A stretch of DNA of 64,000 nt. Origin: an uncultured Gemmatimonadota bacterium. GTDB taxonomy: Bacteria; Gemmatimonadota; Gemmatimonadetes; Gemmatimonadales; Gemmatimonadaceae. The stretch lies in contig CAMLIT010000007.1 of the NCBI GenBank assembly GCA_946480295.1, forward strand, positions 3,547-67,546, given 5' to 3'. Below are positions 38,561-60,030 of the stretch, in pieces. A program made the translations under genes and the position numbers. Within the stretch, counting starts at the first letter, position 1; every line of letters starts with the position of its first letter. Below the pieces are notes generated by a model. That model did no database searches and was not told the origin of the DNA. It saw only the letters and a program-made list of their open reading frames with translations.

Positions 38561-39703
38561 GTGACAGTTCTCCGCCCTCATCTCACCGCCTTGGCCGCGC
38601 GCACAGCGGCCAGCGACGCCCGCCCCGCCTTTGTCCGCGCGACAGGCGCACCCGAGCCCACCATCCCGGCACAGGCGGCGATCTACCCCGAGTTTCGATA
38701 CATGGGGAGCAAGCACCGCCTGCTCGCTTGGCTGCACGGGGTCTTCGCGAAGCTCGAATTCGAGACGGCGGAGGACCCCTTCGCGGGCGCTGGGAGCGTC
38801 GCCTACCTGCTCAAGGCCATGGGCAAGCGCGTGCGCGCGTCAGACTTCCTCGCCTTCCCAACGACGATCACCACTGCTTTGGTCGAGAACTCGCACGAGA
38901 CCGTGAGTGAACGACTCGTGGATCGCCTGCTGCGCCCGAGTGCCGCGCACTCGGATTTCATCCAGCGGACCTTCGCCGGCATCTTCTTCACGCCCGCTGA
39001 TCTCCGGCTGCTGGACACGGTGTGGGGCAACCTCGGCGCGGTGCGGGGCCGGCATCAGCGCGCGCTTGTCCTGACCGCCCTCATTCGCGCCTGCATGAAG
39101 CGACAGCCGCGCGGCGTGTTCACAGTCGCCAACCGAAACGGTGAGGCACGCTACGACGACGGCCGCCGCGATCTGCGCCTATCGCTCGCGGATCACTTCG
39201 TCGAACAAGTTGCGCAGCTCAATGAGGTCGTCTTCGATAACTGCCGCCGGCACAGCGTCGCCCGGCGCGACGCCTTCGCGCCGGATCGGCGGAAGCCAGC
39301 GGACCTCGTCTATCTCGACCCGCCGTACGTGCCACGCGCCGATGACAACTGCTACGTCAAGCGCTACCACTTCCTCGAAGGTCTCGCGACCTACTGGCAA
39401 GGGGTCCAGATTCTCGAATCAAGCAGGGTCAAGAAGATCGCGAAGCCTTACACGCCGTTCAGCTATCGTGCGGACGCGCTCGACGCGTTCGATCGGCTCT
39501 TCCAGAAGTACCGCCGGAGCACGATCGTGCTCTCGTACTCCGACAACGGCTTCCCCGATCGGAGCGTCCTCGGTGAGCTGCTAGGGCGATACAAGCGCGC
39601 GGTGACGGTGCACGAACGGGCGCATCGCTACCACTTCGGTACGCACGCGGGCGTGGGGCGCGCCGAGACCATGGAGTACGTCCTCGTGGGAACCGACTCG
39701 TAG
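38561..39703 (+). CDS. Type II adenine-specific DNA methyltransferase (D12/Dam class)
   Basis: This 380-aa N6-adenine methylase of the alpha (D12) class has the SAM-binding motif at about residues 74-79 (FAGAGS) after FRYMGSKHRLLAWL, and catalytic DPPY at 253-256 (LVYLDPPYV). It would protect the host recognition site. The first 40 residues (ALAARTAASDARP region) look disordered, so a later start is possible. The endonuclease gene follows after 10 bases, giving a classic methylase-first restriction-modification operon. Confidence 0.85.
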   Translation: MTVLRPHLTALAARTAASDARPAFVRATGAPEPTIPAQAAIYPEFRYMGSKHRLLAWLHGVFAKLEFETAEDPFAGAGSVAYLLKAMGKRVRASDFLAFPTTITTALVENSHETVSERLVDRLLRPSAAHSDFIQRTFAGIFFTPADLRLLDTVWGNLGAVRGRHQRALVLTALIRACMKRQPRGVFTVANRNGEARYDDGRRDLRLSLADHFVEQVAQLNEVVFDNCRRHSVARRDAFAPDRRKPADLVYLDPPYVPRADDNCYVKRYHFLEGLATYWQGVQILESSRVKKIAKPYTPFSYRADALDAFDRLFQKYRRSTIVLSYSDNGFPDRSVLGELLGRYKRAVTVHERAHRYHFGTHAGVGRAETMEYVLVGTDS

Positions 39704-39713
39704 CCCGGGCGCG

Positions 39714-40556
39714 ATGAAACCGATCAAGCAGCAGCTGGAGGTCATCACCGAATCGCTGACAGCCATGGATGCCGCGTGGCAGGACGACACCGCCCTTCGC
39801 ATCATCGAGCGGCTAAAGGCCATCCCGACCAAAGAGGCGTTCAGCGCGGATGACGTTCGAGCCCTTCTCCAGGATCACTTCGACGATGCGCTGACGGTCT
39901 GCCGGCTATTCCTCGATCTCTCGAAGGACCAGTTCCAGACGCAATTGGATAGTGTGCTCGGATCGGGCGGCTCTGGCGTGAAGCGATTCAAGGCGAATGA
40001 GGACGCGTACATCGCGGCGCTCGCGAGTCTTGGACTGCTTGATCGCATGATGGAGGTCGTGAACACGCCTCTCCGATGGTCAGATCTCCTCGTCGAGCGG
40101 CTGAAGGGTGGACGCGGTCGGGCGATCAGCGGCCAGCGGCGCGGCCGCTCCCTCGAGGATTTCGTGGAGACGCAGGTCGCTGCCGTATTTGGCGAAGGCA
40201 AGTACGTCCCGCGCTGCTCGTTCGTCGGCAAGGACGGCATCTCGACCGCGAAGTGCGATTTCGCGATCCCCACGAAGGAGGCCCCGAGCATCGTCATCGA
40301 GGCAAAGGGATACGGCGCGACCGGCAGCAAGCAGACCGACGTGCTCGGCGATCTCGGCACCATCGTGAATGTCAAGCGCAACGACACGACGTTGCTGTTC
40401 GTCACCGACGGCCTGACATGGCGCCGTCGCAGCAATGACCTGAAGAAGATCGTCGCGATGCAGAACAGCGGCGAGATCACGCGCATCTACACCCGGACGA
40501 TGGCGGACGAGATGCTCGCGGACCTGCACCAACTCAAGGCGGAGTACGGCCTGTAG
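39714..40556 (+). CDS. Type II restriction endonuclease (PD-(D/E)XK)
   Basis: This 280-aa nuclease has an N-terminal helical half that probably mediates DNA recognition. The C-terminal catalytic core has Asp182 (AKCDFAIP) and Glu196-x-Lys198 (VIEAKGY), followed by GATGSKQTDVLGDL. That last segment recurs in type II enzymes paired with Dam-type methylases. The recognition sequence cannot be read from the protein. It is expressed with the upstream methylase and followed by a GC hairpin. Confidence 0.8.
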   Translation: MKPIKQQLEVITESLTAMDAAWQDDTALRIIERLKAIPTKEAFSADDVRALLQDHFDDALTVCRLFLDLSKDQFQTQLDSVLGSGGSGVKRFKANEDAYIAALASLGLLDRMMEVVNTPLRWSDLLVERLKGGRGRAISGQRRGRSLEDFVETQVAAVFGEGKYVPRCSFVGKDGISTAKCDFAIPTKEAPSIVIEAKGYGATGSKQTDVLGDLGTIVNVKRNDTTLLFVTDGLTWRRRSNDLKKIVAMQNSGEITRIYTRTMADEMLADLHQLKAEYGL

Positions 40557-43490: not shown

Positions 43491-43613
43491 CCGACAGGGC
43501 CGCCGTGGCCTCGCCTGTTGCCCGGAGACACGAGCCTGGCCTCCTGTGCAACTTCCGATGACATAGAGGGTTGCGATGGTGTCCTCGACCTAGCTTCGGC
43601 GCGCCTTCGGGTG

Positions 43614-43619
43614 TATATT
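43614..43619 (+). promoter_or_regulatory. Possible -10 box of the CBASS operon
   Basis: TATATT within GTGTATATTCAG lies 90 bases before the CD-NTase ATG, in a gap on the coding strand. It matches the boxes before murC and ftsZ; no clear -35. Confidence 0.3.
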
Positions 43620-43708
43620 CAGGCCACTGTTCCGGCTGGAGCCGGGACTCGGCCAGACCGCGCCGGGCCGAGCCGCTGCACACGCAACGCGCGGCTCCGA
43701 GGTGCTCC

Positions 43709-44848
43709 ATGGCCGCTCCCTATCTTGCCACGCCGAACGCGGATCTCGACTACCTGCTCGCGCAGGCCGCGCGTGCGCTGCAGCTCACGCCGGAGCAGTA
43801 CGCGCTCGCCGTCCAGCACTACGAGGCTGTGGCAAGGTGGCTCGGGGCCGACGGCAGTCCGCTCGCGCCGTTCAAACCATGGATCTACCCGCAGGGGTCG
43901 ATGGCCCTGGAGACAACGGTGCGCCCCCGCCTGCGCGACGAGTACGACCTCGATCTCGTGTGCCAGATGCTCTTCACGGGCATGGCAGCGCTCGAGCTCT
44001 ATAACACGGTGTACGCGCGGCTCAGGGACAACAGAATCTACGCGCCGATGCTCGAGAAGAAGAACCGGTGCGTGCGGCTCAATTACGCCCACAACTTTCA
44101 TCTCGACATCATCCCGGCGGAGCCGGACCGCGCCCGTGGCGGCACGGCGATCGTCGTGCCGGATCGCTCGCTCCGAGACTGGACGCCGAGCAACCCGCGG
44201 GGCTACGTGGCCTGGTTCACGGACCGCTCCCGCGTCACGCTCGCGGAGCTTCGGAAGAAGGTCGACCCCGTCCCGCAACCCACGCCAGCAGACGAGAAGC
44301 CGGCGCTCACGATCGCCGTCCAGCTGATCAAGCGGCGCCGGGACATGTTGTGCGACGAGGACACGGCGCCGCGCTCGATCGTGCTCACGACGCTCGCCGG
44401 CGAATACTACCACGGCACCGACTGCGTGCTTACGGCGATGATGCAGATCGTGGCAGGCATCCAGCAGCGCATCCGCGATGCGCGCCCGGGGCGCATCACC
44501 GTCTGCAATCCGACGAACGTCGACGAGAAGTTCTGCGAGTCGTTCGACGCGCCCGGGCGGTACGCCGCCTTCAAGTGGTTCATCGACCAGCTCGAACAGG
44601 ACCTCGCCCGGATCGCCGCGGCGCAGGGGATTCCCGCGCTGCAGCGAGTGCTTGCCGACACCTTCGGCGAGGAGCCGGTCACAAAGGCGGTGCGGTTGTA
44701 CGGCGAGCTGCTGAAGGCCCAACGCGATGCCCGCAGTCTGACATTTTCCGGTGCGGCCGGCGGCGGGCTGTCGATCATCACGCCGATGCGTGGAATCACC
44801 CGCGATGTCCCGTCCAACCGCTACTTCGGTGGCGAGGATGGGGAGTAA
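43709..44848 (+). CDS. CD-NTase (cGAS/DncV-like nucleotidyltransferase) of a CBASS system
   Basis: This 379-aa enzyme makes a cyclic oligonucleotide alarm signal after phage infection. The Pol-beta-type active site is complete: Gly63-Ser64 in YPQGSMALE, Asp80-x-Asp82 in EYDLDLVCQ, and the third acid Asp133 in HLDIIP. A helical C-terminal domain follows. The C-terminus reads NRYFGGEDGE, and its last codons overlap the ATG of the E2 gene. CapV-type phospholipase effectors usually respond to cyclic GMP-AMP, so 3',3'-cGAMP is the likely product (inference). Confidence 0.9.
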   Translation: MAAPYLATPNADLDYLLAQAARALQLTPEQYALAVQHYEAVARWLGADGSPLAPFKPWIYPQGSMALETTVRPRLRDEYDLDLVCQMLFTGMAALELYNTVYARLRDNRIYAPMLEKKNRCVRLNYAHNFHLDIIPAEPDRARGGTAIVVPDRSLRDWTPSNPRGYVAWFTDRSRVTLAELRKKVDPVPQPTPADEKPALTIAVQLIKRRRDMLCDEDTAPRSIVLTTLAGEYYHGTDCVLTAMMQIVAGIQQRIRDARPGRITVCNPTNVDEKFCESFDAPGRYAAFKWFIDQLEQDLARIAAAQGIPALQRVLADTFGEEPVTKAVRLYGELLKAQRDARSLTFSGAAGGGLSIITPMRGITRDVPSNRYFGGEDGE

Positions 44849-45326
44849 TCGCCACTTCATCCGCGCGCGTCGTCTGAGCCTCGGGCAGCAGCGCGCGCAG
44901 ATGATGGCGGTGTGGCCTGGGCTCGAGACGCGAATGGAGAACGGCATGCTCGTCGTACGAGGTACCGTGCAGCCCTCGCCGATCACGCGGGCGTACCGCA
45001 TTCGCGTGACGTACGCGGATCGCGGCGTGCCGAAAGCCTTCGTGATCGCGCCGGATCTCGTGCGGCGATCCGCCGATCCGGACACGCCGATCCCGCACAC
45101 CTACGGCGCCCTGTCGCTGGGCAAGGAGCGGCCGTGCCTCTACGACCCGGCGGCCGGGGAGTGGACATCGGCCATGCCCATCGCGACGACCATCATGCCG
45201 TGGCTGCTGTCGTGGCTCGTGGATTACGAGCTCTGGTTCGCGACGGGAGAGTGGCTCGGCGGCGGCGTCACTCACGCGACACCGAAGCGTCCTGACGAGC
45301 CGCCACCCGGTGAATCCGCGGCATGA
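44838..45326 (+). CDS. E2-like ubiquitin-conjugation-fold protein of short type II CBASS
   Basis: The 162-aa protein has the compact layout of the stand-alone E2 proteins of short type II CBASS: beta strands RAYRIRVTYADRGVPKAFV, then IPHTYG (His87), PCLYDP with the presumed catalytic Cys100, EWTSAMPIATTIMPW and DYELWFATGEWLGGG. In this CBASS class the E2 is reported to act on the CD-NTase C-terminus and to modulate its activity. No E1 or JAB partner is present. The start overlaps the CD-NTase by 11 bases and the end overlaps the patatin gene by 4. Confidence 0.8.
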   Translation: MGSNRHFIRARRLSLGQQRAQMMAVWPGLETRMENGMLVVRGTVQPSPITRAYRIRVTYADRGVPKAFVIAPDLVRRSADPDTPIPHTYGALSLGKERPCLYDPAAGEWTSAMPIATTIMPWLLSWLVDYELWFATGEWLGGGVTHATPKRPDEPPPGESAA

Positions 45327-46264
45327 CCTTTCGCATCCTGAGCCTCGACGGCGGCGGTGTGCGAGGTGCGTACTCGGCCGCCGTCCTGACGGAGATTGAG
45401 GAGAGCAGCGGGAAGCACGTCGCCGATCACTTCGACTTGATTGCCGGCACGTCGACGGGCGGCATCATCGCGATCGGCCTCGGACTAGGTCTCAGCGCCC
45501 GCCAGATCCTCGAGTTCTACAAGCAGCACGGGCCGACCATCTTCCCGTCGACGGGCGCACACGTGCGCGCCTGGGCATCCTTACGTCGGTGGGTCGGGCC
45601 GAAGTTCGATGCAGCCGCCCTGGATGCCGCGCTCACCGAAGTCTTCGGCGATCGCCTCCTCGGCGAATCGAAGTGCCGGCTCGTGATCCCGTCCTATGAT
45701 GCCGTCGCCGGCGACGTGCACCTGTTCAAGACACGCCATGATTCGCGGGTGCTTCGAGATCACACCCGTCGCGCCGCGGAGGTAGCCCGTGCGACGAGCG
45801 CGGCTCCGACGTATCTGCCGCTCTTCCCGAGTTCCTGGGGCCAGGCGTTCCTGGACGGGGGCGTGTGGGCGAACTGTCCCTCAACGGTTGCGATACTCGA
45901 GGCCACCGGCGTACTGGGCGTCCCAGTAGAGGAGATTCACCTCCTCAGCATCGGCACGGCGACCAGCGCCTTCTCGATCAGTCGCCGGTCCGCGGGCGGT
46001 GGGTTAGTACACTATCGGACTGCCGTCATCGACCTGCTGCAGCAGGCGCCCGCCGCTGGAGCGTGGGCGCAAACAAAGCTGCTGCTGGGCGATCGGCAGC
46101 ACCGCATCGACTCCATCGTCGCCCCGAAGCGTTTCGCGCTCGATGATGCCCGGCGTGTCGACGAACTAATCGCCCTCGGGGTTCGTGACGGGCGTCATCA
46201 CGCGACAGCCGTCGTTGCGCGATTCATGGCGACCGTAGCCGAACGGTTCGTTCCGTTGCCGTAA
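45323..46264 (+). CDS. capV: CapV, patatin-like phospholipase effector of CBASS
   Basis: This 313-aa patatin-family lipase degrades the inner membrane when activated by the CBASS nucleotide, causing cell death. Visible are the oxyanion loop LDGGGVRGAYS, the nucleophile Ser44 in GTSTGG, and the dyad Asp178 in FLDGGVWANCPS. Size and motif order match CapV. The ATG overlaps the E2 stop (ATGA), so all three genes form one coupled operon. An 8-bp hairpin follows the stop. Confidence 0.88.
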   Translation: MTFRILSLDGGGVRGAYSAAVLTEIEESSGKHVADHFDLIAGTSTGGIIAIGLGLGLSARQILEFYKQHGPTIFPSTGAHVRAWASLRRWVGPKFDAAALDAALTEVFGDRLLGESKCRLVIPSYDAVAGDVHLFKTRHDSRVLRDHTRRAAEVARATSAAPTYLPLFPSSWGQAFLDGGVWANCPSTVAILEATGVLGVPVEEIHLLSIGTATSAFSISRRSAGGGLVHYRTAVIDLLQQAPAAGAWAQTKLLLGDRQHRIDSIVAPKRFALDDARRVDELIALGVRDGRHHATAVVARFMATVAERFVPLP

Positions 46265-47759: not shown

Positions 47760-50651
47760 ATGTGTCCCAAGCGGCTTCCCGACGACTTCTACGCGCGGCT
47801 TCTCGCCGACGCCGATGCCTTTACGCGTGACCGCGTGCTCCGCGACGGCCGGTTCTTCCGCAACGAGCTGTCCTCGTATCTTGCCGAACAGCATGGGGCG
47901 GAGGGGCAGGCACGCATCGGGCCGTCGGTGCTCGATCGACTCTTGCGGGACCTCGATACTGAGCACCTCGGTGCGCACGAGGGGTACAGCCGTCAGGTGC
48001 CCCGGATACGGCCTGCGACGCTCGCCGACCTCGTCGCGCTTGCGCGTGATAGCGTGGACTCGGGGCACCGGCCGCCCAAGGGCCGCCGTGCGACGCGCGA
48101 AGTCCCGGCGCTCTCGCCGACGCAGCTCCCGAACGTGCTGACTGCAGCCGCGGAAGTGGCGGAGATGGTGACCGGGGACCGCACCAACCACGCTGGCGTT
48201 GGCCCGGAGAACTTCGAATGGATCAGCACCGCGGGGGAGCTGGGGCAGGGAGAGTGGACGCTTGTTGGGCGTATCGAGGCGTACTCCGACTTGACCGCGG
48301 AACGAGACTACGCCGTGCGAAGGAGGGAGGGTGAGCCCGCGTGGCATCCCGACATGAATGCGTCCCGGCGCAAGGCGCATGCAGCGGGTGTGCGCATCCT
48401 GCTCGACCTGGGTGCGACAAAGGGGCGGCTCGCTCGCGGGGACTCACTCGAGACCTTCGCGAATGCCACACGCCGCGCCGCGGAGTGGCAGTCGTTCTGC
48501 GAATCGTGGCAGGAGCGGCTCGTCGCCGATATTGGCAAGAGCGTGCGGAAGATCGAGCAGGGCATCAAGACCCTCGCGCTGTACGCGACCCGCCAGGGAG
48601 CACTGTCGCCCGAGCAGACCGATTGGGCCGCAGTTCGCGATGCTATCGAGGCCGACGCCGAGCGCGTCGAGCACCCGATCACGAATGATGTCCGTACCTG
48701 GGCGGCGTACGCCTATCGCGCGCTCCGCGAGCGCGCGCTCATCCACGGACCCGAGTGGCCGCGACGCGACCGCTTGCGCATGTCACTCGTGCACACGCGG
48801 TTCTTACCCGCCTCCACGACGAGCGGCGACTTCTCGGCCTGGCTCGATGACGACGGCCATCACCCGACCGCACTCTGTGCGATGCTCAGCGAGTGGTTCG
48901 AGTGGGCAACTCTCCCCGACGATCTCCTCGAGCAGGAACATCGGCGTGGGAGACTCCCGCTCCGCGCTTGGCCGAATGCCTCGCCGGAGCAGCAACTGCG
49001 CGCTGCTCGTGACGAGTCGTTGTTCCGGCTCGACAAGGCGACGCTCAAGGGACGCATCGAGCTATTCAACCTCGCTGCCGGGTACGCGGCTCGGCACTGC
49101 GGCACCGACTTCACCGATGATCCAGACTGCGATCTCGCGCTCGTCGATCCAGACGCGCTGCAGGCGCACATCCGGCTCCGGCACCCGGGAAGAGCGGACG
49201 TGAAGGATCAACTGATGGCGGCCGTCGGCTGGGCCTTGGCGACGCTCGCCAGCCCGTTCCTCGAAGGGAGGGCGCTGCTACAGCGCGCCCAGGCGATGGC
49301 GAGCGGCGATGTCTCGCGCGCTGAGCAGCTCCAGGGCAAGGCCGATCGGCTGAAGGCGCATTCACTTCGGGTCAAGGTCGTTGCCGCGCGTGCTACGCCG
49401 GCCAAACGCAAGCGCGATGCTGACGGCGAGGACCTGACCCGGAGAGAGATCCAGCGGATCTGGAAACTCTGGACGGCCGACGGCGTCTCCGGCTGGCACA
49501 AGCTCGGCCTCATGCGCGATGCGATGGTCGCCGACATCGAGCGCCTGGGCGCACGGTGCGATGCGCGCGCGCGTGACGCCGGGATCCTCTCTCTCTCACT
49601 GCGTGAGCAGCTCGCGTCGATTCGTGACGGGTTCTTCCGCCCAACGATGACGTGGGCAGTGCTGGTGCGCGATGCGGTGATCATAACGCTGCTCTGGAAG
49701 GTGCCCCTGCGCGAGCGGAACATCGTGGGCCTGACCTTCGATCACCTGAAGTGCTCCCCGAGCGGCGCTGTGCAGCTGGAGTTCTCGGCTGACGACATGA
49801 AGGCCGATCGTCCGTTCGAACCGCCGGTTCTTCTGGAAGCCGAGCTCGCGGATCCGCACGCCATCGCCATGGTGATCCCCGACCTCTGGCAGCTGTACCT
49901 CGCGCCAGGGGGTGCACGCGATGAGGTCCTGCGCCTCACCCGTGATCCCGGCGTTATCGTACGCGAGTGGACGACCGTCAGCGACATCAAGGTGAACGGC
50001 CGAATGCTGCGTCAGACGACGAGGCACTCCCGTGTGCTCGCTGCGTTCGGGGAGTCGGGGCCCGGCCCCGGAGACGAGGATCGGCCGCTTCGCGCGGGAG
50101 ACGTGTGCCCATCGCGCTTTGTGTTCCCCGCGGTCGCGCGCAAGGGCGGGAGCCGCGGCGTTACACTCGCAGAGCGGGTACGCGCGGAGCTGGCTTACGA
50201 CAGCGACGCATTCGCCCAGCAGTTCAAGAGCCGACTCCGCGAGTACGCGGACACCATGGGAATCGACGCCGACGCGTTGGGCGCGATCTTCGGCGCACTT
50301 GCGCCACACGTCGTGAGGCTCTTGTTCGGCAGCCATCACAGCGACCCGGATCGGTGGCCTGATGCGATCGGGCTCGATGCGGCCAGCAACCTGTTGCACC
50401 ACGCCTCCACGGACATCACGCGTCGACGCTATGCGGCCAAGAACGAACGACAGACGAGCGCGGTAAGCCGGCGCACCGGCCGGACGATCGTGTCCGAGCC
50501 GGTAGAGGAGGCCGAGTCCGGACAGGGCAACTACGCCGACGAAATGGCCAGGGCGGCGGAACTGTACCAACGGGGCGTCTACACACCGGACGAGTTCCGG
50601 GCTGTGAAGGCCGCCATCGGCACCAAGTACGCCGTCGCCGCGGCGGCGTAG
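47760..50651 (+). CDS. Very large tyrosine recombinase (963 aa)
   Basis: The catalytic domain lies in the last third. Box I is LRERNIVGLTFDHL with Arg651, box II is APHVVRLLF with His850-x-x-Arg853, then LLHHASTDITRRRY with His881 and the nucleophile Tyr891. The 640-residue N-terminal part is helical and unlike the short SAM-like domain of phage integrases. The C-terminal tail (AAELYQRGVYTPDEFRAVKAAI) resembles a SHOCT motif. The protein is about three times the usual integrase length. It presumably moves this element or a sub-element; a 128-aa partner and palindromes lie upstream. Confidence 0.8.
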   Translation: MCPKRLPDDFYARLLADADAFTRDRVLRDGRFFRNELSSYLAEQHGAEGQARIGPSVLDRLLRDLDTEHLGAHEGYSRQVPRIRPATLADLVALARDSVDSGHRPPKGRRATREVPALSPTQLPNVLTAAAEVAEMVTGDRTNHAGVGPENFEWISTAGELGQGEWTLVGRIEAYSDLTAERDYAVRRREGEPAWHPDMNASRRKAHAAGVRILLDLGATKGRLARGDSLETFANATRRAAEWQSFCESWQERLVADIGKSVRKIEQGIKTLALYATRQGALSPEQTDWAAVRDAIEADAERVEHPITNDVRTWAAYAYRALRERALIHGPEWPRRDRLRMSLVHTRFLPASTTSGDFSAWLDDDGHHPTALCAMLSEWFEWATLPDDLLEQEHRRGRLPLRAWPNASPEQQLRAARDESLFRLDKATLKGRIELFNLAAGYAARHCGTDFTDDPDCDLALVDPDALQAHIRLRHPGRADVKDQLMAAVGWALATLASPFLEGRALLQRAQAMASGDVSRAEQLQGKADRLKAHSLRVKVVAARATPAKRKRDADGEDLTRREIQRIWKLWTADGVSGWHKLGLMRDAMVADIERLGARCDARARDAGILSLSLREQLASIRDGFFRPTMTWAVLVRDAVIITLLWKVPLRERNIVGLTFDHLKCSPSGAVQLEFSADDMKADRPFEPPVLLEAELADPHAIAMVIPDLWQLYLAPGGARDEVLRLTRDPGVIVREWTTVSDIKVNGRMLRQTTRHSRVLAAFGESGPGPGDEDRPLRAGDVCPSRFVFPAVARKGGSRGVTLAERVRAELAYDSDAFAQQFKSRLREYADTMGIDADALGAIFGALAPHVVRLLFGSHHSDPDRWPDAIGLDAASNLLHHASTDITRRRYAAKNERQTSAVSRRTGRTIVSEPVEEAESGQGNYADEMARAAELYQRGVYTPDEFRAVKAAIGTKYAVAAAA

Positions 50652-50757: not shown

Positions 50758-50779
50758 GGGATATTCGCTTCGTTCAACC
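50758..50779 (+). repeat. 22-bp dispersed repeat, copy 1
   Basis: The plus strand shows GGGATATTCGC followed directly by the core TTCGTTCAACC. It differs from copies 3 and 4 (read on the minus strand) at one position each. Confidence 0.9.
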
Positions 50780-50871: not shown

Positions 50872-50893
50872 TGGGGTATTCACTTCATTCAAC
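50872..50893 (+). repeat. 22-bp dispersed repeat, copy 2
   Basis: Same orientation as copy 1, three mismatches (GGGGTATTCAC then TTCATTCAACC). It ends 44 bases before the stop of the zinc-ribbon gene. Confidence 0.85.
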
Positions 50894-50937
50894 CTCTGCG
50901 GCGGCAACGATGACGCGTCCCATCGGCGGGCTGGATG

Positions 50938-51374: not shown

Positions 51375-51396
51375 GGTTGAACGAAGCGAATACCCC
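51375..51396 (-). repeat. 22-bp dispersed repeat, copy 3
   Basis: This copy is inverted relative to copies 1 and 2, about 24 bases upstream of the zinc-ribbon gene start. Together with copy 2 it brackets that gene as an inverted pair. Confidence 0.9.
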
Positions 51397-51890: not shown

Positions 51891-52112
51891 GTGCCGACTC
51901 CGCCGATCTACGTGTACTCGGGAACGGGCGCTAGCCACCGGAACGTAGTCCGACCTGGCCCGCAGCGCACCTATGTGGTTGACGTACGCGGCCATGAGGA
52001 TGACCCGTGGCACGTCGTGCGCGTGCTCGCGTACGGATTCTTCGATCTGGCGTACCGCGAAACGATCCGCTACCAGCGGGCCCACGTCTGGCGGACAGCG
52101 CGGACGAGGTAG
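51891..52112 (+). CDS. Small hypothetical protein, N-terminus uncertain
   Basis: The 73-aa frame starts at GTG. Coding character continues upstream without a start (TADPVYLIPTPAVTTALPDG from about 51783), overlapping the end of the preceding remnant in another frame. Visible core: PPIYVYSGTGASHRNVVRPG and HVVRVLAYGFFDLAYRE. It could be the displaced C-terminal part of the same broken gene or a separate gene. Function unknown. Confidence 0.35.
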   Translation: MPTPPIYVYSGTGASHRNVVRPGPQRTYVVDVRGHEDDPWHVVRVLAYGFFDLAYRETIRYQRAHVWRTARTR

Positions 52113-52182
52113 ACACAAAGCCGATCGGAGCGACGAGGAGACGGCCCGACAAACGCGGTTCCGTATTGCCCGTCGAGGAGCC

Positions 52183-52794
52183 ATGACCACGAAGCGATAC
52201 CTGTCCGACACGCACCTGCTGCACGACAACATCATCCACCACTGCGCCCGCCCATTCCGGTCGACGCGCGAGATGGACGAGGCGCTCGTGCTCGCGATGC
52301 TGGAGGCAGAGGAGGATGGCGCGCACCTCTACCATCTGGGCGACCTCACATCAAAGCCGGAGGCCGCCGTGGCACTCTACGGCGGGCTATACCATCCGGA
52401 GCGCCACACGCTCATCGCCGGGAACCATGACCGGGTGGGCAGCCCGCGGCTTGAGGCCCGCGCCGCCTACAGCGCGTACGCCGGGTCGATTGTCGGCACC
52501 GAGGCCACGTGGCAGGAAAATGTGTTGCTGGTTGAGGATGAACTCGATGGCCGACCGGTCCGACTCCTCCTCAGCCACGCTCCACAGCCAGACCCTCGGG
52601 GCGCTGACTTGAACCTCTACGGCCACTGCCACAACAACAATCTGCGCTATCCGGAGCGATTCGCGGCGGAGTACCCGTAGCTCGCCCCCGGCTCCGAGCG
52701 GCACCTGAACGTCTCCGTCGAGCTGTTGGGCTACCGCCCCGTTTCGCTGGAGGAACTCATGACGCGAGTTCGGGCGGGCGAAGCCTTCGTGTGA
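52183..52794 (+). pseudogene. Calcineurin-like metallophosphoesterase with in-frame amber stop
   Basis: The frame encodes a small phosphoesterase of the phage/island type: YLSDTHLLHDNIIHH, YHLGDLTSKPE, AGNHDRVG, LLSHAPQPD and NLYGHCHNN cover the metal-binding motifs. TAG at 52678-52680 ends it after 165 codons. The same frame then continues with the family's normal C-terminus (HLNVSVELLGYRPVSLEEL) to a TGA at 52792-52794. Only the C-terminal strand region is lost, so a shortened protein might still fold. Confidence 0.75.
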
Positions 52795-53149
52795 GCGCCG
52801 TTGGCGAGGTTGAACGAAGCAAATATCCCACACAGGTGAGAAGGCGCGGACGTGGTACCCGTGCTGGAAGACCGTCGCGCTCTACGCAGCCGCTGCATCC
52901 GAGGGCCATGGGGACCGGAGATCGCAACCGCCGACCGCCGTCGCCCGGCGGTGGGGCCACCGGAACAGGCGCCCGACGGGCGTGAGCCGCCACAGCCGCC
53001 CCTCGTCCACTGAGGAGCCGGCCGAGCCGGCGGCACTGCGCGGCTTGAGCCTCGTAGCCGGCGGGGCGACGCTCCAGCCACGCGAGTACGCGCGCGAGCT
53101 TGACGGGATCGGTGGTTCGTCCATGGCCGCACGATGAGCGGTAGGCCAC
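52757..53149 (-). CDS. Small helical protein, paralogue of the one at 43293-43490
   Basis: The coding-like part is the N-terminal third (PVKLARVLAWLERRPAGYEA then QAAQCRRLGRLL), matching the 43.3-kb protein. The rest is Arg/Pro-rich and runs through a repeat copy, so the natural end may have been lost. The start is GTG or a nearby codon. Confidence 0.4.
   Translation of the reverse strand: MAYRSSCGHGRTTDPVKLARVLAWLERRPAGYEAQAAQCRRLGRLLSGRGAAVAAHARRAPVPVAPPPGDGGRRLRSPVPMALGCSGCVERDGLPARVPRPRLLTCVGYLLRSTSPTALTRRLRPPELAS
52808..52829 (-). repeat. 22-bp dispersed repeat, copy 4
   Basis: Inverted relative to copies 1 and 2, 14 bases after the ancestral stop of the phosphoesterase frame. It shares GCAAATATCCCA with the duplicated unit before ftsA. 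Confidence 0.9.
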
Positions 53150-53261: not shown

Positions 53262-53960
53262 TCAGCTGGTGCTCCAGTCGGTCCTAAGCGGCACCGCGGA
53301 AGTCGACGACGTGAAGAACTCATCCGATGCGTGGCTGCCGCCAAGCAGCGCGTGCACGCGCGGGCGCCAGTCGTCCGCACGCCAGCCCCGCGTGGCAGGG
53401 TGGTCAATCCGGACTACGCGCACTGGTCGCCCGTCCTGACGATAGTAGGTGCGCTCGAGCCAATGTCCCGCGACTTCCAACCCGGCGCGCTCCACGTCGC
53501 CAACGGGCGGGGCCGGCAGGTGGTCCCACACTCCCTGTCCACAGACGATGGCGATGTCCGGCTGCATGATCTCGAGCAACGGCAGGAACGCACGTCGGGC
53601 GTCGGCCCACATCGCCGGCGTCGGGCGGGTGTGGTGGTCATCCCCGACGATCTCCTGCACCAGATTCGCGAAGGCCACTCGGCCCCAGAAGCTCCGCAGC
53701 TCCGTCTCGCTCACCCGTGCTCCCGTCGACACCAGCGACGCCACCTTCGAGAAGAACGGGCTGCGCCGGAAATGATGCGCCCGGCGCTCGCTGACGCTCG
53801 AGAACACGTGATCTCGCACGACCCCCTGCGTGTAGTCGGCGGGTTGAGGACCGCGAGCGTCGTAATGCGACTCACCGATGATGCTCAGCCGCGGCCTGGT
53901 GAGCTCGTATTCCGTGCCGCGCCACGGCGCCATCCGAACCGGATCACTCGACGTCTGCAT
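53262..53960 (-). CDS. Uracil-DNA-glycosylase-superfamily-like protein
   Basis: The 232-aa protein starts MQTSSDPVRMAPWRG. It has the UDG-fold layout: LSIIGESHYDARGP where family enzymes have a GxDPY-type loop, FFSKVASLV, WGRVAFANLVQEIVGDDHH, MQPDIAIVCGQGVWDHLP, and IDHPATRGW near the end where the HPS/HPA loop sits. The catalytic identity is uncertain and it may not act on uracil. The start overlaps the end of a small upstream gene by 17 bases, so the two form a unit. Confidence 0.6.
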   Translation of the reverse strand: MQTSSDPVRMAPWRGTEYELTRPRLSIIGESHYDARGPQPADYTQGVVRDHVFSSVSERRAHHFRRSPFFSKVASLVSTGARVSETELRSFWGRVAFANLVQEIVGDDHHTRPTPAMWADARRAFLPLLEIMQPDIAIVCGQGVWDHLPAPPVGDVERAGLEVAGHWLERTYYRQDGRPVRVVRIDHPATRGWRADDWRPRVHALLGGSHASDEFFTSSTSAVPLRTDWSTS

Positions 53961-54189
53961 GCGACACCTCCTGAAGCCGAAATCCGGTCTGCCCATCATC
54001 GACCAGCAGCACGAACAACGGGCCATCTAGCGCATCGAGCATCTGCCGGGCAACGGCGTGTAGCAGCACGGCACCTTCGCTGATGCGCTCCACGCACACG
54101 GCATCGCCCGTGGTGAGATCGTCCGCCGTGTGGATGATGTCGTGCGCGTTCGGATACACGAACGCCGTGGAATTGCGTGTTCTCGTCAT
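53944..54189 (-). CDS. Small partner of the UDG-like protein
   Basis: The 81-aa acidic protein (MTRTRNSTAFVYPNAHDIIH, then DAVCVERISEGAVLLHAVAR and DGPLFVLLVDDGQTGF) overlaps the UDG-like gene by 17 bases. Size and coupling suggest a regulatory or binding partner. No family is recognised. Confidence 0.5.
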   Translation of the reverse strand: MTRTRNSTAFVYPNAHDIIHTADDLTTGDAVCVERISEGAVLLHAVARQMLDALDGPLFVLLVDDGQTGFRLQEVSHADVE

Positions 54190-54841: not shown

Positions 54842-55789
54842 CTACTCATCCGGTGTCGGTACGTTCTGCAGCGCATTCAGGGCCACAAGCCGCATCGCCT
54901 CGTCTGAGCAACTGAACAGGGGCGCCAGCCAATCGGGTTGAAGGTCGGGTGCGCGAGCCTGAATCGAGTCAGCGACCCATCCATGGAGCGCCTGCAGATC
55001 ATCGCCGTGGTACGTCGCGTGCCACGCCGGGTATCGGTCGGCAATCATGCGCACTTCCTCGGCTTCCGGCGCGAGCGCAGCCCTCGCGAGCATGTGCAGC
55101 GTGCCGATCGCCGCGTCGGGGGGGCAGATACGGGCGTACCTGGGCGACAGCAAAGCCTGTAGCAGCACATCTCGAAGCGCGATCCGACAGCCTTCGCTTA
55201 CGCGATCGTTCAACACGAGCCAATGTGCCATGTGGTACTCCGCGTCGCCTCGGAGCAGCATAGGAATGAGGGCAGGCTCTCGCCAGTGTGCGTACGAAGC
55301 GAGCGCGCGCCGTAGGTACGGGCTGTCGAAGGACAGCAGATCTCGGAGCGCTGCGGGATCGCGGCAGTCGTTCACCCACTCGGCGAGAGTATCCGCCCGC
55401 TCTGTGACAGGGCCCGGCAAGGACGACTTGCACATCCAGCCAGGCGCGCGCGTCGCGACATCGAGAAAACGCGTCCAGAGGCGGCCATGCGTGTTCGCAT
55501 CGCGTAGAGCACGCATGACAAGGCCGGCACTGATGTCCCAATACAGGTCGCGCGAGAGCGTCGAGCGCAGGAGCGCGATGACCACGGCTTGGTCGGGGTG
55601 CGTCCCCCAGTAGAAGAGCCGTCCGGTACTGCCACGCTCGGTGTCACGTTCAAGGTCTTCGAGCGCGCGCTTCCCCGCGCCGTCGGCCGGGGCCCCGGGC
55701 CATTTCAGGGAGTACGGCGGGTCGGCCAAACGAAGCGGGAGGTCGAGCGCCTCGAGCTCGTAGTCCGTGGTGTCGTCGTAAGGTGTCAT
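54842..55789 (-). CDS. Unknown helical-repeat protein, helicase operon gene 3
   Basis: The 315-aa protein starts MTPYDDTTDYELEALDLP. It is helix-rich with short repeat-like units (LRDLLSFDSPYLRRALASYA; CRIALRDVLLQALLSPRY; GTLHMLARAALAPEAEEV), suggesting a HEAT-like solenoid. Its last 33 residues (LQPDWLAPLFSCSDEAMRLV onward) resemble the end of the small protein at 58188-58574. It follows the helicase by 26 bases on the same strand. Confidence 0.6.
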   Translation of the reverse strand: MTPYDDTTDYELEALDLPLRLADPPYSLKWPGAPADGAGKRALEDLERDTERGSTGRLFYWGTHPDQAVVIALLRSTLSRDLYWDISAGLVMRALRDANTHGRLWTRFLDVATRAPGWMCKSSLPGPVTERADTLAEWVNDCRDPAALRDLLSFDSPYLRRALASYAHWREPALIPMLLRGDAEYHMAHWLVLNDRVSEGCRIALRDVLLQALLSPRYARICPPDAAIGTLHMLARAALAPEAEEVRMIADRYPAWHATYHGDDLQALHGWVADSIQARAPDLQPDWLAPLFSCSDEAMRLVALNALQNVPTPDE

Positions 55790-55815
55790 GTGGGATAGAC
55801 GAAGGTGGATTCGTT

Positions 55816-58080
55816 TCAGTGACTCTCGACGGAGTCCGACGACCAACGCTTGGGCTGAGCTGGCAGCGAAGCACGAACGGCGCAATGCTCACGAATCTGC
55901 CGGAGCTTGTCGGCGCGGTCGCGCACTTGGGAGGCCACGTCGATGGCGCCGCAGCCCTCGAGCTGGTCGAGGATCGAGAGGAGCAGGGGCCGCGGGTGCA
56001 GAGGCTCGAGCTGGGCACGAAGTCCCGCGACATCGGCGCACACGATGAGCGTGTTTCGAGCGCGCGTCAGGGAGACCAGGAGGAGTCTCGAGCCTTCGTC
56101 CGACCAGCGGGAGACCCTCATCCACTCGTAAACGGGGATCCCTCGCCCCTCGACCAGATCGAGCAGCACCACGTCGGCTTCCTGCGCCTGATACGTATGC
56201 GCGGTGCCGGCGCGCGCAGGAGTGCGCGGGAAGTGGCGCGCGAGCATCCGGGCGTGGAGGCGCGCCTGCGCGACGTACGGCGAGATGATGGCGAGGGATC
56301 CCCGGCCGGGCCCTACGACACGATGCTCGTGGAGCAGCGTTACCAGCCCGCGTACGGTCGCGCCGTGCATCTTGTTGATGCGCGAGCCGCCCGGGGCGTA
56401 CTCCGCCAGTGGTCCGAGGTCGCTCGTATCTGCGAGGTACGCCCCGTGATGGCTGCGCGACGGCCGAGAGAACGGGAGGGGCGGCACCGCTAACCGCGCC
56501 CGAGCGACGGCGGGATCGGTCTCGAAGCTCCCTCCGTAAGCGGGAGCAACAAGCGCTGCGATCTCAGGGTGCATGCGGCGGTTGGGCCCGATCCGCACAA
56601 CATGGTCGGCGAGATGAAGCGACCCGTCCGAATGCTCCAAGACCCCGTCGCTCGTCGCGAAGGCATCGCGCGCGAGCCACTGCGCTGAGAGCGGCGTGTC
56701 CGCACACACCACCGCAGGGAGCTGACGAGGGTCGCCGAGGAACCACACCCGCTCGCGCGCTAACGTGGCGAGGCAGTACGCGAGTGCTGCCGGCAGCATG
56801 CTGGCCTCGTCGATGACCACCACGTCCCAGCCGCTGTCGCGGATCGCATGTCGCATCAGGGCCGTGTGGGCAGTGGCGCCGAGCACCTCGCACGTTCGCA
56901 CGAGCTCGTCCTCGAGATGGGCCTCGGAGCGCGCCCGCGCCGCTTCAAAGCGGCGCGCCCGCTCACGCGCTACCGACTCGGCGCGCGCGGCGTAGCGCTC
57001 AAGGACGCGGATCCGGCGCAGAAGCTCGAGGCGCTCTTCATGGTGGTCCTGCGGAAGGATCGTGAGCAGCACGCGCAATTCGTCCAACTCGTCCAACCGC
57101 TCCTCTATGCGGACCGCGCTGTCAACGGCGCGGCGCATCTGCTCGGCTCGCACGCGCGCGGCGACGCTGCTGCTCTCCGCCCACTCACCGTACCGCTCCC
57201 GAAATGCAGGCGTGATGTTGCGCCCGACCCGGAGCAGCGCGCCCAGACGCCGGTCGCCGTGTCGAGACAGCCGGTCGACCATGCGGCCGATCGCCTCGTC
57301 GACCGCCGCGTTGCTCGGCGCGGCCACGAGCACCCGCGGCCGGCGCACGGCACCTCCACCATGAGTCGCCGGCGCGCATGCCGCCTGCATCAGCCACTCG
57401 ATTCCGGCCACGGCGGTCGAAGTCTTGCCCGTTCCGGCTGGACCGAGGGCCGCCGAGAGTGAGCGCGTGGCGAGCGCATGAACCGCCGCGAGCTGCGCCT
57501 CGTTCGGCTCATCTGGCCACCGCCCGGGCCACAGGCGGGCGAACGACTCCGGGATGTCGCCACCGATCGGCGTGTCGGGGACGAAGAGCGCGCTCGCACG
57601 CTCCGGCTGGCCGAGGAAGCGCAGCGCGACGTCGGCGTTGAACGACCGAAGTCCAGCGCTGATCCCGCGGAGAATCTCCTGCGCGAAGATGAGCGGCACG
57701 CTATCTGGCGGGACGAGTCGACCACCTGCGAGCATCGTGGGGCCGAGGTCGACCGGGATGGCGAGGCGGAGAACTCTGCCTCCGTCGGGCAGAACGACGG
57801 CGCCATAGGTCGATGGCATGGCACCGGGACGCGCGGCCGGGACGAAGCGCATCGACTGGTCGGGATGGAGGCGGCTCGGGTGTGGCATCGCGAATTCGTA
57901 AACCGTTCCCGATCCCGATCCAGCGCCCGCGTCGTCAGGCATCCGTCGACCGGCCGGCAGCGGGATGGGGTCCCGGTGCTCCGCCCGCATCTCGTGATCC
58001 AGCGCCGCGCACATGGCCTCGTGCGTGCGCGCGAGCGCTTGCTGGACATCTGTCGGCAGGGCATTCAGCCTGACGTGCAC
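55816..58080 (-). CDS. SF1 DNA/RNA helicase (UPF1-like, AAA_11/AAA_12)
   Basis: This 754-aa helicase has an N-terminal region of about 200 residues of unknown fold, then Walker A at 213-220 (GPAGTGKT). A long helical insertion follows. Walker B is VVIDEASMLP, with WFLGDPRQLPAV (motif III), LAIISPYVAQARL, TYQAQEADVVLLDLVEG (motif V) and LVSLTRARNTLIVCAD (motif VI). This is the UPF1/Dna2-like class. No nuclease domain is seen. It sits between two proteins that share a C-terminal signature, an arrangement I do not recognise from known defence systems. The start is GTG. Confidence 0.85.
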   Translation of the reverse strand: MHVRLNALPTDVQQALARTHEAMCAALDHEMRAEHRDPIPLPAGRRMPDDAGAGSGSGTVYEFAMPHPSRLHPDQSMRFVPAARPGAMPSTYGAVVLPDGGRVLRLAIPVDLGPTMLAGGRLVPPDSVPLIFAQEILRGISAGLRSFNADVALRFLGQPERASALFVPDTPIGGDIPESFARLWPGRWPDEPNEAQLAAVHALATRSLSAALGPAGTGKTSTAVAGIEWLMQAACAPATHGGGAVRRPRVLVAAPSNAAVDEAIGRMVDRLSRHGDRRLGALLRVGRNITPAFRERYGEWAESSSVAARVRAEQMRRAVDSAVRIEERLDELDELRVLLTILPQDHHEERLELLRRIRVLERYAARAESVARERARRFEAARARSEAHLEDELVRTCEVLGATAHTALMRHAIRDSGWDVVVIDEASMLPAALAYCLATLARERVWFLGDPRQLPAVVCADTPLSAQWLARDAFATSDGVLEHSDGSLHLADHVVRIGPNRRMHPEIAALVAPAYGGSFETDPAVARARLAVPPLPFSRPSRSHHGAYLADTSDLGPLAEYAPGGSRINKMHGATVRGLVTLLHEHRVVGPGRGSLAIISPYVAQARLHARMLARHFPRTPARAGTAHTYQAQEADVVLLDLVEGRGIPVYEWMRVSRWSDEGSRLLLVSLTRARNTLIVCADVAGLRAQLEPLHPRPLLLSILDQLEGCGAIDVASQVRDRADKLRQIREHCAVRASLPAQPKRWSSDSVESH

Positions 58081-58187
58081 GACCGCCTCCTGGCGAGTGG
58101 TGCGTCAGGCTACCCGGCTCCCCACTGCAAACCAGAAATACCGCTGGTGACCGGTGCGTGCAGGTTCGGCAATTCCCGCGACGAGTC

Positions 58188-58574
58188 CTACGCCGCGGGG
58201 GCGGGCCAGCGCGATACGAGTTCGAGGCCTGCCTCGCGAATGTCGTCCCGCGTGGACGAGAACATCGGCGCCAGGTCTGCAGGTTCGAGCCGCGAGAGCT
58301 GCTCAGCCGTGCCATAGCGCAGGATGGCGTCGAGCATCGCGTACAGGGGGCCGAGCGCCCCTTCGGCTGTGAGGCGTCTGACGGTCGGCCGGACCAATGC
58401 CGCGAGTTCTGTCGGCGGGAGCTGCAGGGCGACGCGCCCCGCCAAGTTCCAGATCGCCTGGAACTCGTCGAATTCCGGCTCCGATGCCTCTAGCAGGCGC
58501 TCCACGTCCGTGGGATGGATCGGTGCGCGGAGTCGTACACGGCTGGCGTGGGGCTGGGACGTGAGATGGCGCAT
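58188..58574 (-). CDS. Small helical protein, helicase operon gene 1
   Basis: The 128-aa helix-rich protein starts MRHLTSQPHASRVRL. Its end (LEPADLAPMFSSTRDDIREA onward) matches the end of the protein at 54842-55789 at the positions Lx2-Px2-LAP-x-FS and in spacing to the terminus. It lies 107 bases upstream of the helicase on the same strand. Function unknown; it is possibly a short paralogue or immunity/adaptor partner of the solenoid protein. Confidence 0.55.
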   Translation of the reverse strand: MRHLTSQPHASRVRLRAPIHPTDVERLLEASEPEFDEFQAIWNLAGRVALQLPPTELAALVRPTVRRLTAEGALGPLYAMLDAILRYGTAEQLSRLEPADLAPMFSSTRDDIREAGLELVSRWPAPAA

Positions 58575-58683: not shown

Positions 58684-60030
58684 TCACGGAGCCAGCACGG
58701 GATCCATCGGGGGCGGCAGCCGGCCGGGGAGGAACCTCGGGTCAAAGAGATCCAGCAGCAGCGAGACCGCGGGGGGCGGAGTGGGCGAGGGATCCCCGGG
58801 GCACGGCTCCCAGGTGCGGCCGGTGAACACTTCTGCGGCTGCCGCTGCGACGCCGAGCAATCCCCCCCGTTCCGCAGCCTCGAGCAGGTGCGCCATCGCT
58901 CCTAAGCGCTTGGCGAGGGCCATATAGACCGGCCTCGGGATGACCGCGACGAGTTCCTCGGTCCCCGCAGCTTCGGGCGTGACCGGCGCGTCCCCGAACG
59001 CGCGGCGGAGCCCCGCGAGACCGGTCACGAGTCGTACCCGGAGAATGGCGTGGGTGTACTCCTGCCAGAGCACGCGGTCGCGGGCATCGCCAAGCGCAGC
59101 GCTCGCGGCGATCTGCCAGGGGTTGCGACGCCCGTGCGCGACCTCGCCATCGCACGCACCGTCCGGCCCACCGCTGTCTCGGAAATCCCTCGCCGCGTCG
59201 GAGCTGAGGCCGAGCTTCACGAGGTACTCTCCGCGCGCGCACGGCTTGAGGTGCGTGCCGTGCGCTTCGTCGGGCAGGTACGCGGCGATGTCCTTCATCG
59301 CGACGCCGTTCTCGACCAGGGCTCGGGTGAGGCATGAGGCCCATCGTTCCGAGAGCCGTGCTCGGGCGAGGGCAGCCGCTTCCTCGTCGCGCCGCTCACT
59401 CACCACGAAAAGGAGCACGTGAAGGTGCGGGTGCCAGCCCCGTGGACCGTGGGTGACATCGAAGCCGCGCACCGTGTGAGCGATACCCAGGCGAGCCGCG
59501 ATCCGGAGCCACGGGCTCCCATGCGTCAGCAGGTGCCACGCCCGGAGGAGGACCGTCACGAGCAGGCGCAGATCGTCGTTGCGATGGTGCCTGATCGTGA
59601 GGGTCAGCAACCCCAGCTCACCACCCGCCTCGCGCCAGTGGGAGGTCGCGTGAGTGATTTGCCGGCTCGCTTCGGAGCGCCGGGACGACGCGCATTCCGG
59701 GCAGGAGTGGGGGCTCTTGCACCTGACCGGCCCCCGGACCTGCGCGCGGCGCTGTCCGTCCTGCTCGCGAACGCGAATCTCGGCGTGATCGGCCGACGGT
59801 GCGCCGACGCGTTCACCAGGGCGTCGGTGCTTGATCATGTACCCGCACTTGCTGGCCGACCGGGTCGTGATCGTTCGCAGAGCGTCGCGCATGCGCTGCA
59901 GGTCGCGGATCGGGGGGTGGTCTGGCTCGGGGGGGTAACGACTCTCCTGTTCTTCCCCAAGGGGGAGAACCGTGAGAGTAGGGGCCCGCCGATGCGACTG
60001 ATCGTCGGCGGCGCGAGCGCGGGGTGACAC
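58684..60030 (-). CDS. Rolling-circle-type replication initiator (HUH Rep)
   Basis: This 448-aa Rep-like endonuclease has a CKSPHSCPECASSRR Cys cluster around residues 104-116, motif 1 LLTLTIRHH near 141-149, the HUH metal site GWHPHLHVLLF with His202 and His204, and motif 3 EYLVKLG with the presumed nicking Tyr269. A Pro-rich tail ends the protein. Such proteins start rolling-circle replication of small plasmids and some integrative elements. The GTG at 60030 is the longest start; Met47 is an alternative. It heads the minus-strand block. Confidence 0.75.
   Translation of the reverse strand: MSPRARAADDQSHRRAPTLTVLPLGEEQESRYPPEPDHPPIRDLQRMRDALRTITTRSASKCGYMIKHRRPGERVGAPSADHAEIRVREQDGQRRAQVRGPVRCKSPHSCPECASSRRSEASRQITHATSHWREAGGELGLLTLTIRHHRNDDLRLLVTVLLRAWHLLTHGSPWLRIAARLGIAHTVRGFDVTHGPRGWHPHLHVLLFVVSERRDEEAAALARARLSERWASCLTRALVENGVAMKDIAAYLPDEAHGTHLKPCARGEYLVKLGLSSDAARDFRDSGGPDGACDGEVAHGRRNPWQIAASAALGDARDRVLWQEYTHAILRVRLVTGLAGLRRAFGDAPVTPEAAGTEELVAVIPRPVYMALAKRLGAMAHLLEAAERGGLLGVAAAAAEVFTGRTWEPCPGDPSPTPPPAVSLLLDLFDPRFLPGRLPPPMDPVLAP

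What the first reader, a model, noticed from the sequence alone, without database searches (positions are those of the whole stretch)
54842..58574. Unrecognised three-gene unit: SF1 helicase flanked by two proteins sharing a C-terminal signature
On the minus strand a 128-aa protein, a 754-aa UPF1-like helicase and a 315-aa solenoid-like protein follow each other closely. The small and the large flanking proteins end alike (LxPxxLAPxFS, then about 22 residues). The helicase has a long N-terminal region and no nuclease. I know no described defence system with this layout, and it sits between CBASS and Qat.
Basis: partly seen in the sequence, partly recalled or inferred. Interest (0 to 1): 0.75.

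Follow-up and report, generated by a model that had tools for sequence, protein, structure and literature searches.

The report
UPF1-like helicase with two helical neighbours
The three genes are really there, next to a plasmid/phage-type replication gene in a defence-rich island, but only the helicase was found to have close relatives, so the trio is at best a local, untested candidate and not a recognised or demonstrably conserved system.

Summary
On the minus strand lie a 128-aa protein (58574-58188), a 754-aa SF1 helicase (58080-55816) and a 315-aa protein (55789-54842). The two flanking proteins end alike (last 37 residues: 0 of 5000 shuffles score as high, tail chosen after it was seen). 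The helicase looks like an ordinary, intact UPF1-like enzyme: its "long N-terminal region" is most likely the usual stalk and 1B barrel (model pLDDT 90; alignment to UPF1 spans residues 12-720). It belongs to a tight family: four relatives at 58-59% identity, then 33% or less. In the same protein collection the search found no relative of the 128-aa protein and one partial relative of the 315-aa protein, on a contig of another length than those of the four helicases. A conserved trio is therefore not detected, though a fast-evolving one is not excluded; the relatives' neighbourhoods could not be read. Most likely this is an accessory, probably defensive, helicase locus on a mobile island, with lineage-specific helical partners. 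Function is untested.

The parts
58188..58574 (-). p128: 128-aa orphan protein ending in LEPADLAPMFS + 22 aa; only non-significant matches to designed helical/armadillo repeats
   Evidence: only itself among 139 candidates, E <= 0.1; best PDB E 0.036
55816..58080 (-). 754-aa UPF1-like SF1 helicase: helix 10-33 (stalk), strands 39-123 (1B barrel), RecA1 from about 193, long helical hairpin 303-383 before motif II, RecA2; SF1 motifs intact
   Evidence: (AAA_11 102.3 bits, AAA_12 46.8 bits)
54842..55789 (-). p315: 315-aa protein, all-helical in a low-confidence model, possibly an alpha-solenoid, ending in LQPDWLAPLFS + 22 aa
   Evidence: (pLDDT 53.5; best stretch about 140-230)
58684..60030 (-). 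HUH replication initiator (Rep_1) directly upstream, same strand; HUH residues and active-site tyrosine kept
   Evidence: (PF01446 40.8 bits, cut-off 33.2)

Best explanation
A mobile, defence-rich island carries a UPF1-like SF1B helicase from a small subfamily. It most likely acts as an ATP-driven 5'-to-3' translocase on single-stranded RNA or DNA in an accessory, probably anti-phage, role. The two flanking proteins are lineage-specific, probably helical, and plausibly dock on the helicase, for instance on its long helical-hairpin insertion, through their shared C-terminal module; they would act as sensor or scaffold, since neither carries a recognised nuclease. Shown: helicase family and motifs, confident predicted fold, the shared tail, the island setting, no detected conservation of the trio. 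Inferred: co-transcription, physical interaction, polarity (from the family), defence.
Confidence: 0.42

Rival explanations
1. The helicase works alone as an accessory gene of the island. The two flanking genes are unrelated lineage-specific ORFs, and their common ending is one helical-repeat unit, possibly a partial duplication of one gene.
For: Only the helicase was found conserved. The helicase has its own AGGAGG upstream. P0002, the relative of the 315-aa protein, also carries the motif near its C-terminus, so the motif is not tied to this helicase locus. In L001 a distant relative (866 aa) stands near recombinase-like genes (by eye) without any p128, p315 or Rep match.
Against: Two proteins with the same ending on either side of one gene, same strand, tight spacing.
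Confidence: 0.3
2. Rep, p128, helicase and p315 form a replication/mobility module of an integrated rolling-circle element. The HUH Rep nicks and stays on the 5' end, and the SF1B helicase moves 5'-to-3' on the displaced strand, as in Helitrons or TraI-type relaxases (analogy recalled).
For: Intact Rep_1 protein with HUH residues and tyrosine, 109 bp upstream, same strand. Its relatives are in small plasmids (20 of 27 records listed, 1.8-24 kb) and in virus contigs of 4.8-11.6 kb with one of 49 kb; the two I read hold a P-loop ATPase gene near Rep, filamentous-phage-like by eye (L014, L018).
Against: None of the 20 Rep-relative loci encodes a UPF1-like helicase by tblastn or profile at E 0.01 (L041 holds only 16 kb of its 49-kb contig). 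None of the 20 listed plasmid records (of 27) with a Rep relative is among the 3 plasmid records with a helicase match. These Rep relatives are distant (23-36%). The repeat scan of 44-64 kb shows no evident borders around this block; borders were not searched for otherwise.
Confidence: 0.15
3. The helicase is the CnuH- or MkoA-like core of a known defence class (CoCoNuT type II/III or Mokosh) in degenerate or minimal form.
For: PADLOC MkoA 116.2 bits over helicase residues 195-689. Helical insertion and stalk/barrel as described for CnuH.
Against: No kinase, PLD, McrB-type GTPase, McrC-type protein or HEPN/Vsr nuclease by Pfam in the 12 chosen proteins between 47.7 and 63.3 kb.
Confidence: 0.08

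Closest known systems
UPF1/IGHMBP2/Sen1-type SF1B helicases (Pfam AAA_11 + AAA_12)
   Same: Domains, motifs and predicted fold
   Different: Long helical hairpin (303-383) before motif II; NCBIfam IGHMBP2-family model TIGR00376 scores 67.8 bits against a cut-off of 348.9
CnuH helicase of CoCoNuT type II/III systems (PMC11090510)
   Same: UPF1-like core, OB/stalk region, helical insertion after Walker A, a gene directly downstream
   Different: No CnuB/McrB GTPase, CnuC or wHTH-nuclease partner recognised among the proteins scanned; no SmpB-like or RNase-like N-terminal domain seen in the model; no sequence comparison with CnuH was made
Mokosh (MkoA/MkoB)
   Same: Helicase core matches PADLOC MkoA
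   Different: No PLD nuclease and no kinase domain in the helicase or the neighbours scanned by Pfam
Rep_1 rolling-circle initiators of plasmids and filamentous phages
   Same: The upstream gene is an intact member
   Different: None of the 20 virus-contig relatives examined carries a UPF1-like helicase

Membership tests
UPF1-like SF1B helicase | AAA_11 and AAA_12 domains above curated cut-offs | tested here: met
   102.3 vs 27 and 46.8 vs 27 bits
UPF1-like SF1B helicase | Conserved Walker A, DE, GDxxQL, RMHP and motif VI residues | tested here: met
   all kept in the 5-sequence family; Walker A, E425, GD/QL and R502 invariant and R673 nearly so in 43 sequences
UPF1-like SF1B helicase | Stalk plus 1B barrel ahead of RecA1 | tested here: met
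   predicted only: helix 10-33 and strands 39-123 in a pLDDT 90 model; alignments to UPF1/IGHMBP2 begin at residues 7-13 (first and last aligned residues only)
UPF1-like SF1B helicase | 5'-to-3' translocation on ssRNA/ssDNA | not testable with these tools
   needs biochemistry
CoCoNuT type II/III | McrB-type GTPase (CnuB) and CnuC encoded alongside | tested here: not met
   no such Pfam match in the 12 chosen proteins in 47.7-63.3 kb; other ORFs there were not scanned
CoCoNuT type II/III | Downstream CnuE: wHTH fused to nuclease | tested here: inconclusive
   p315 has no Pfam match over cut-off and a weak all-helical model
Mokosh | PLD-like nuclease domain (PF13918 per PMC10952713, passage) | tested here: not met
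   no PLD match in the helicase or in the neighbours scanned
Mokosh | MkoA-type helicase core | tested here: met
   PDLC03920, 3.7e-34, helicase region only
Conserved three-gene system | Co-occurrence of all three genes in other genomes | tested here: inconclusive
   Not detected: longest contigs of helicase relatives P0004-P0007 are 30875, 41344, 45037 and 53871; of p315's only relative 138161; p128 none. Neighbourhoods themselves could not be read.
Rep_1 HUH initiator (upstream gene) | HUH motif and catalytic tyrosine | tested here: met
   H202, H204, Y269 invariant in 7 sequences; PF01446 over cut-off

The most novel reading that the evidence does not exclude
An HUH Rep, a separate UPF1-like helicase and two helical adaptor proteins that share a docking tail form one machine: either a bacterial Rep-plus-own-helicase mobile element with Helitron-like logic, or a nuclease-free, CnuH-like defence complex in which two adaptors bind the helicase through the same C-terminal module.
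Probability: 0.12. Interest if true: 0.65.

Novelty: new member of a known kind. Interest (0 to 1): 0.3.

Why it matters
If the trio acts together it would add a nuclease-free helicase-adaptor design to the CnuH-type UPF1-like helicases, which PMC11090510 describes as typically encoded with a downstream effector, generally a nuclease. If Rep and helicase act together it would be a bacterial rolling-circle element that brings its own SF1B helicase.

Tried and rejected
Whole-genome context: no genome is held for the window, so neither organism nor genome-wide paralogues could be settled. I guess Gemmatimonadota from gene order and GC, but no call supports it. Chloroflexota sample: 7 of 400 genomes with distant matches at E <= 1e-30; no p315, p128, P0002 or Rep match at E 0.05 in those 7 loci. 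Viral contigs: no confirmed relative of helicase, p315 or p128. Phage records: no match for Rep or helicase. Plasmids: 3 distant helicase matches, none for P0002, none for the 963-aa protein. Rfam over the window: nothing. PDB by sequence: nothing significant for p315/P0002, p128 or Rep. A HEPN-type RNase in p315 was considered because R57 and H64 are shared with P0002; rejected for lack of any profile match and because the stretch reads as a helical repeat (by eye). An integron-like reading of the repeats was considered; the conserved part lies on the wrong side of a GTTRRRY-like core, so it was not pursued (by eye).

Literature: the layout does not appear in the listings I saw of searches (3 papers; 7; 10 of 315; 5; 2; 10 of 15). 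With the PADLOC, NCBIfam and PHROGs scans, that is all that 'undescribed' rests on. Search 98 concerned integrons only.

Full report
Observation. The three ORFs exist exactly where stated. p128 runs 58574-58188, the helicase 58080-55816, p315 55789-54842, all on the minus strand, with 107 and 26 nt between them. GC3 is 0.76-0.81 and there are no internal stops. The codon-position filter passes all three (in longer-start versions) but also passes antisense ORFs, among them 57478-58317 on the plus strand, so it is weak evidence; the helicase is secured by its relatives, p128 mainly by its tail. In some searches p128 was given without its first methionine (127 aa).

The shared ending. The two flanking proteins end LEPADLAPMFS and LQPDWLAPLFS, each followed by 22 residues. 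BLASTP of the pair gives 11 of 31 identities, E 0.003 for a single comparison. Against shuffled sequences the full-length local score of 50 is reached by 21 of 2000 (p315 shuffled) and 34 of 2000 (p128 shuffled); the last 37 residues of each, aligned locally, by 0 of 5000, but that stretch was picked after the match was known. The only other relative found for p315, P0002, carries IQPADLAPLLKDSD 50 residues from its own C-terminus. A profile of the p315 and P0002 segments ranks p128 next after p315 itself among 4799 six-frame pieces, with weak E 0.027. The regular expression finds the motif among those pieces in p128, p315 and one unrelated ORF in the left half of the window, there 306 residues from the C-end. 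Against this: in the smaller controls, 5 of 300 shuffles for p128-p315 is no better than 6 of 300 for p128 against the 963-aa protein (score 53) and not far from 13 of 300 against the UDG-like protein, and p128 scores 51 against two helicases of the protein list; p128 against P0002 is reached by 29 of 1000. It is the tail, at the same place in both proteins, and not the overall score that carries the case. It reads like one unit of a HEAT/ARM-type repeat (by eye), which would make it a common structural motif rather than a private tag.

How far it is conserved. In a search of 5.8 billion proteins the helicase has itself plus four close relatives (58-59%; sources lgn and jgi, unnamed) and then a gap to 24-33% (95 hits at E <= 0.001, itself included; 7995 candidates scored, the list being cut there). 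p315 has itself plus P0002 (35% over 34% of the query; 7998 candidates scored). p128 has only itself (139 candidates, E <= 0.1). The longest contigs of the four close helicases are 30875, 41344, 45037 and 53871 bases and that of P0002 is 138161; the three window proteins are all listed on a contig of 17991. So no common contig is indicated. If p128 and p315 accompanied those helicases at anything like 58% identity they should have been found; faster divergence, small-gene annotation gaps and the word-based search leave room for doubt.

A 448-aa Rep_1 protein lies 109 bp upstream on the same strand (PF01446 40.8 bits, cut-off 33.2). HUH residues H202/H204 and Y269 are invariant in 7 aligned Reps. 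Relatives are in 27 plasmid records (20 listed, 1.8-24 kb) and in IMG/VR contigs (7 loci; 20, contigs of 4.8-11.6 kb and one of 49 kb); the two I read hold a P-loop ATPase gene near Rep as in filamentous phages (L014, L018; label by eye). None of the 20 loci has a UPF1-like helicase by tblastn or by profile. The Rep-helicase adjacency is therefore not a general trait of such Reps; whether it is of this helicase family is open, because no protein search was left for Rep.

Setting. The island starts after the comEC-like gene that ends at 32271: four core genes have GC3 0.94-0.97, eleven island genes 0.74-0.86 (the wider list is). It holds an Abi_alpha protein, a type II methyltransferase and DpnII-like endonuclease, a CD-NTase + E2 + phospholipase CBASS, a 963-aa protein with tyrosine-recombinase-like motifs (by eye; no Pfam match at E <= 10), and QatA/QatB (QatA is under NCBIfam's own cut-off, 383.7 of 600).

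Mechanism. I commit, at 0.42, to an accessory, probably defensive, SF1B translocase with lineage-specific helical partners that dock through the common tail. Shown: family, motifs, tail, setting; predicted: fold. Inferred: operon, complex, polarity, defence. Rivals: a stand-alone helicase with unrelated neighbours (0.30), a Rep-linked replication module (0.15), a reduced CoCoNuT/Mokosh relative (0.08). Of the finding's own refutation tests, 'no conserved co-occurrence' is met only as far as these tools reach, which is why interest is low; 'clear match to a known system' is not met.

Papers: PMC11090510, passages and the whole of section 9; PMC10952713, PMC11291487, PMC6668415 and PMC5714925, passages only; all others, listings only.

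Noticed in passing
50762-50779 (-), 50877-50894 (-), 51375-51392 (+), 52808-52825 (+): Four copies of a repeat, GGTTGAACGAAGCGAATA with up to 2 mismatches (expected 0.01 by chance), in both orientations between short ORFs just downstream of the 963-aa putative recombinase; possible recombination sites or a dispersed repeat. No exact match in viral contigs.
   Followed up: partly
47760-50651 (+): 963-aa protein without Pfam, PADLOC, PHROGs or NCBIfam match; C-terminus reads as a tyrosine recombinase (HxxR ... LLHHAS ... RRYA, by eye). No plasmid match.
   Followed up: partly
53262-54026 (-): 254-aa protein, sub-threshold UDG-superfamily match, with relatives (33-37% in the 20 rows listed) in 105 plasmid records, mainly Escherichia, Klebsiella and Salmonella, annotated hypothetical in the rows listed.
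   Followed up: partly
32300-64000: GC3 falls from 0.94-0.97 in four core genes to 0.74-0.86 in eleven genes after the comEC-like gene: the right half of the window looks like a foreign, defence-rich island.
   Followed up: partly
43571-46264 (+): CBASS with CD-NTase, E2-like protein and phospholipase effector.
   Followed up: no
38561-40556 (+): Type II restriction-modification pair: D12-class methyltransferase and DpnII-like endonuclease.
   Followed up: no
51973-52680 (+): Metallophosphoesterase-like protein matching a phage PHROG family (phrog_547), between two of the repeats.
   Followed up: no
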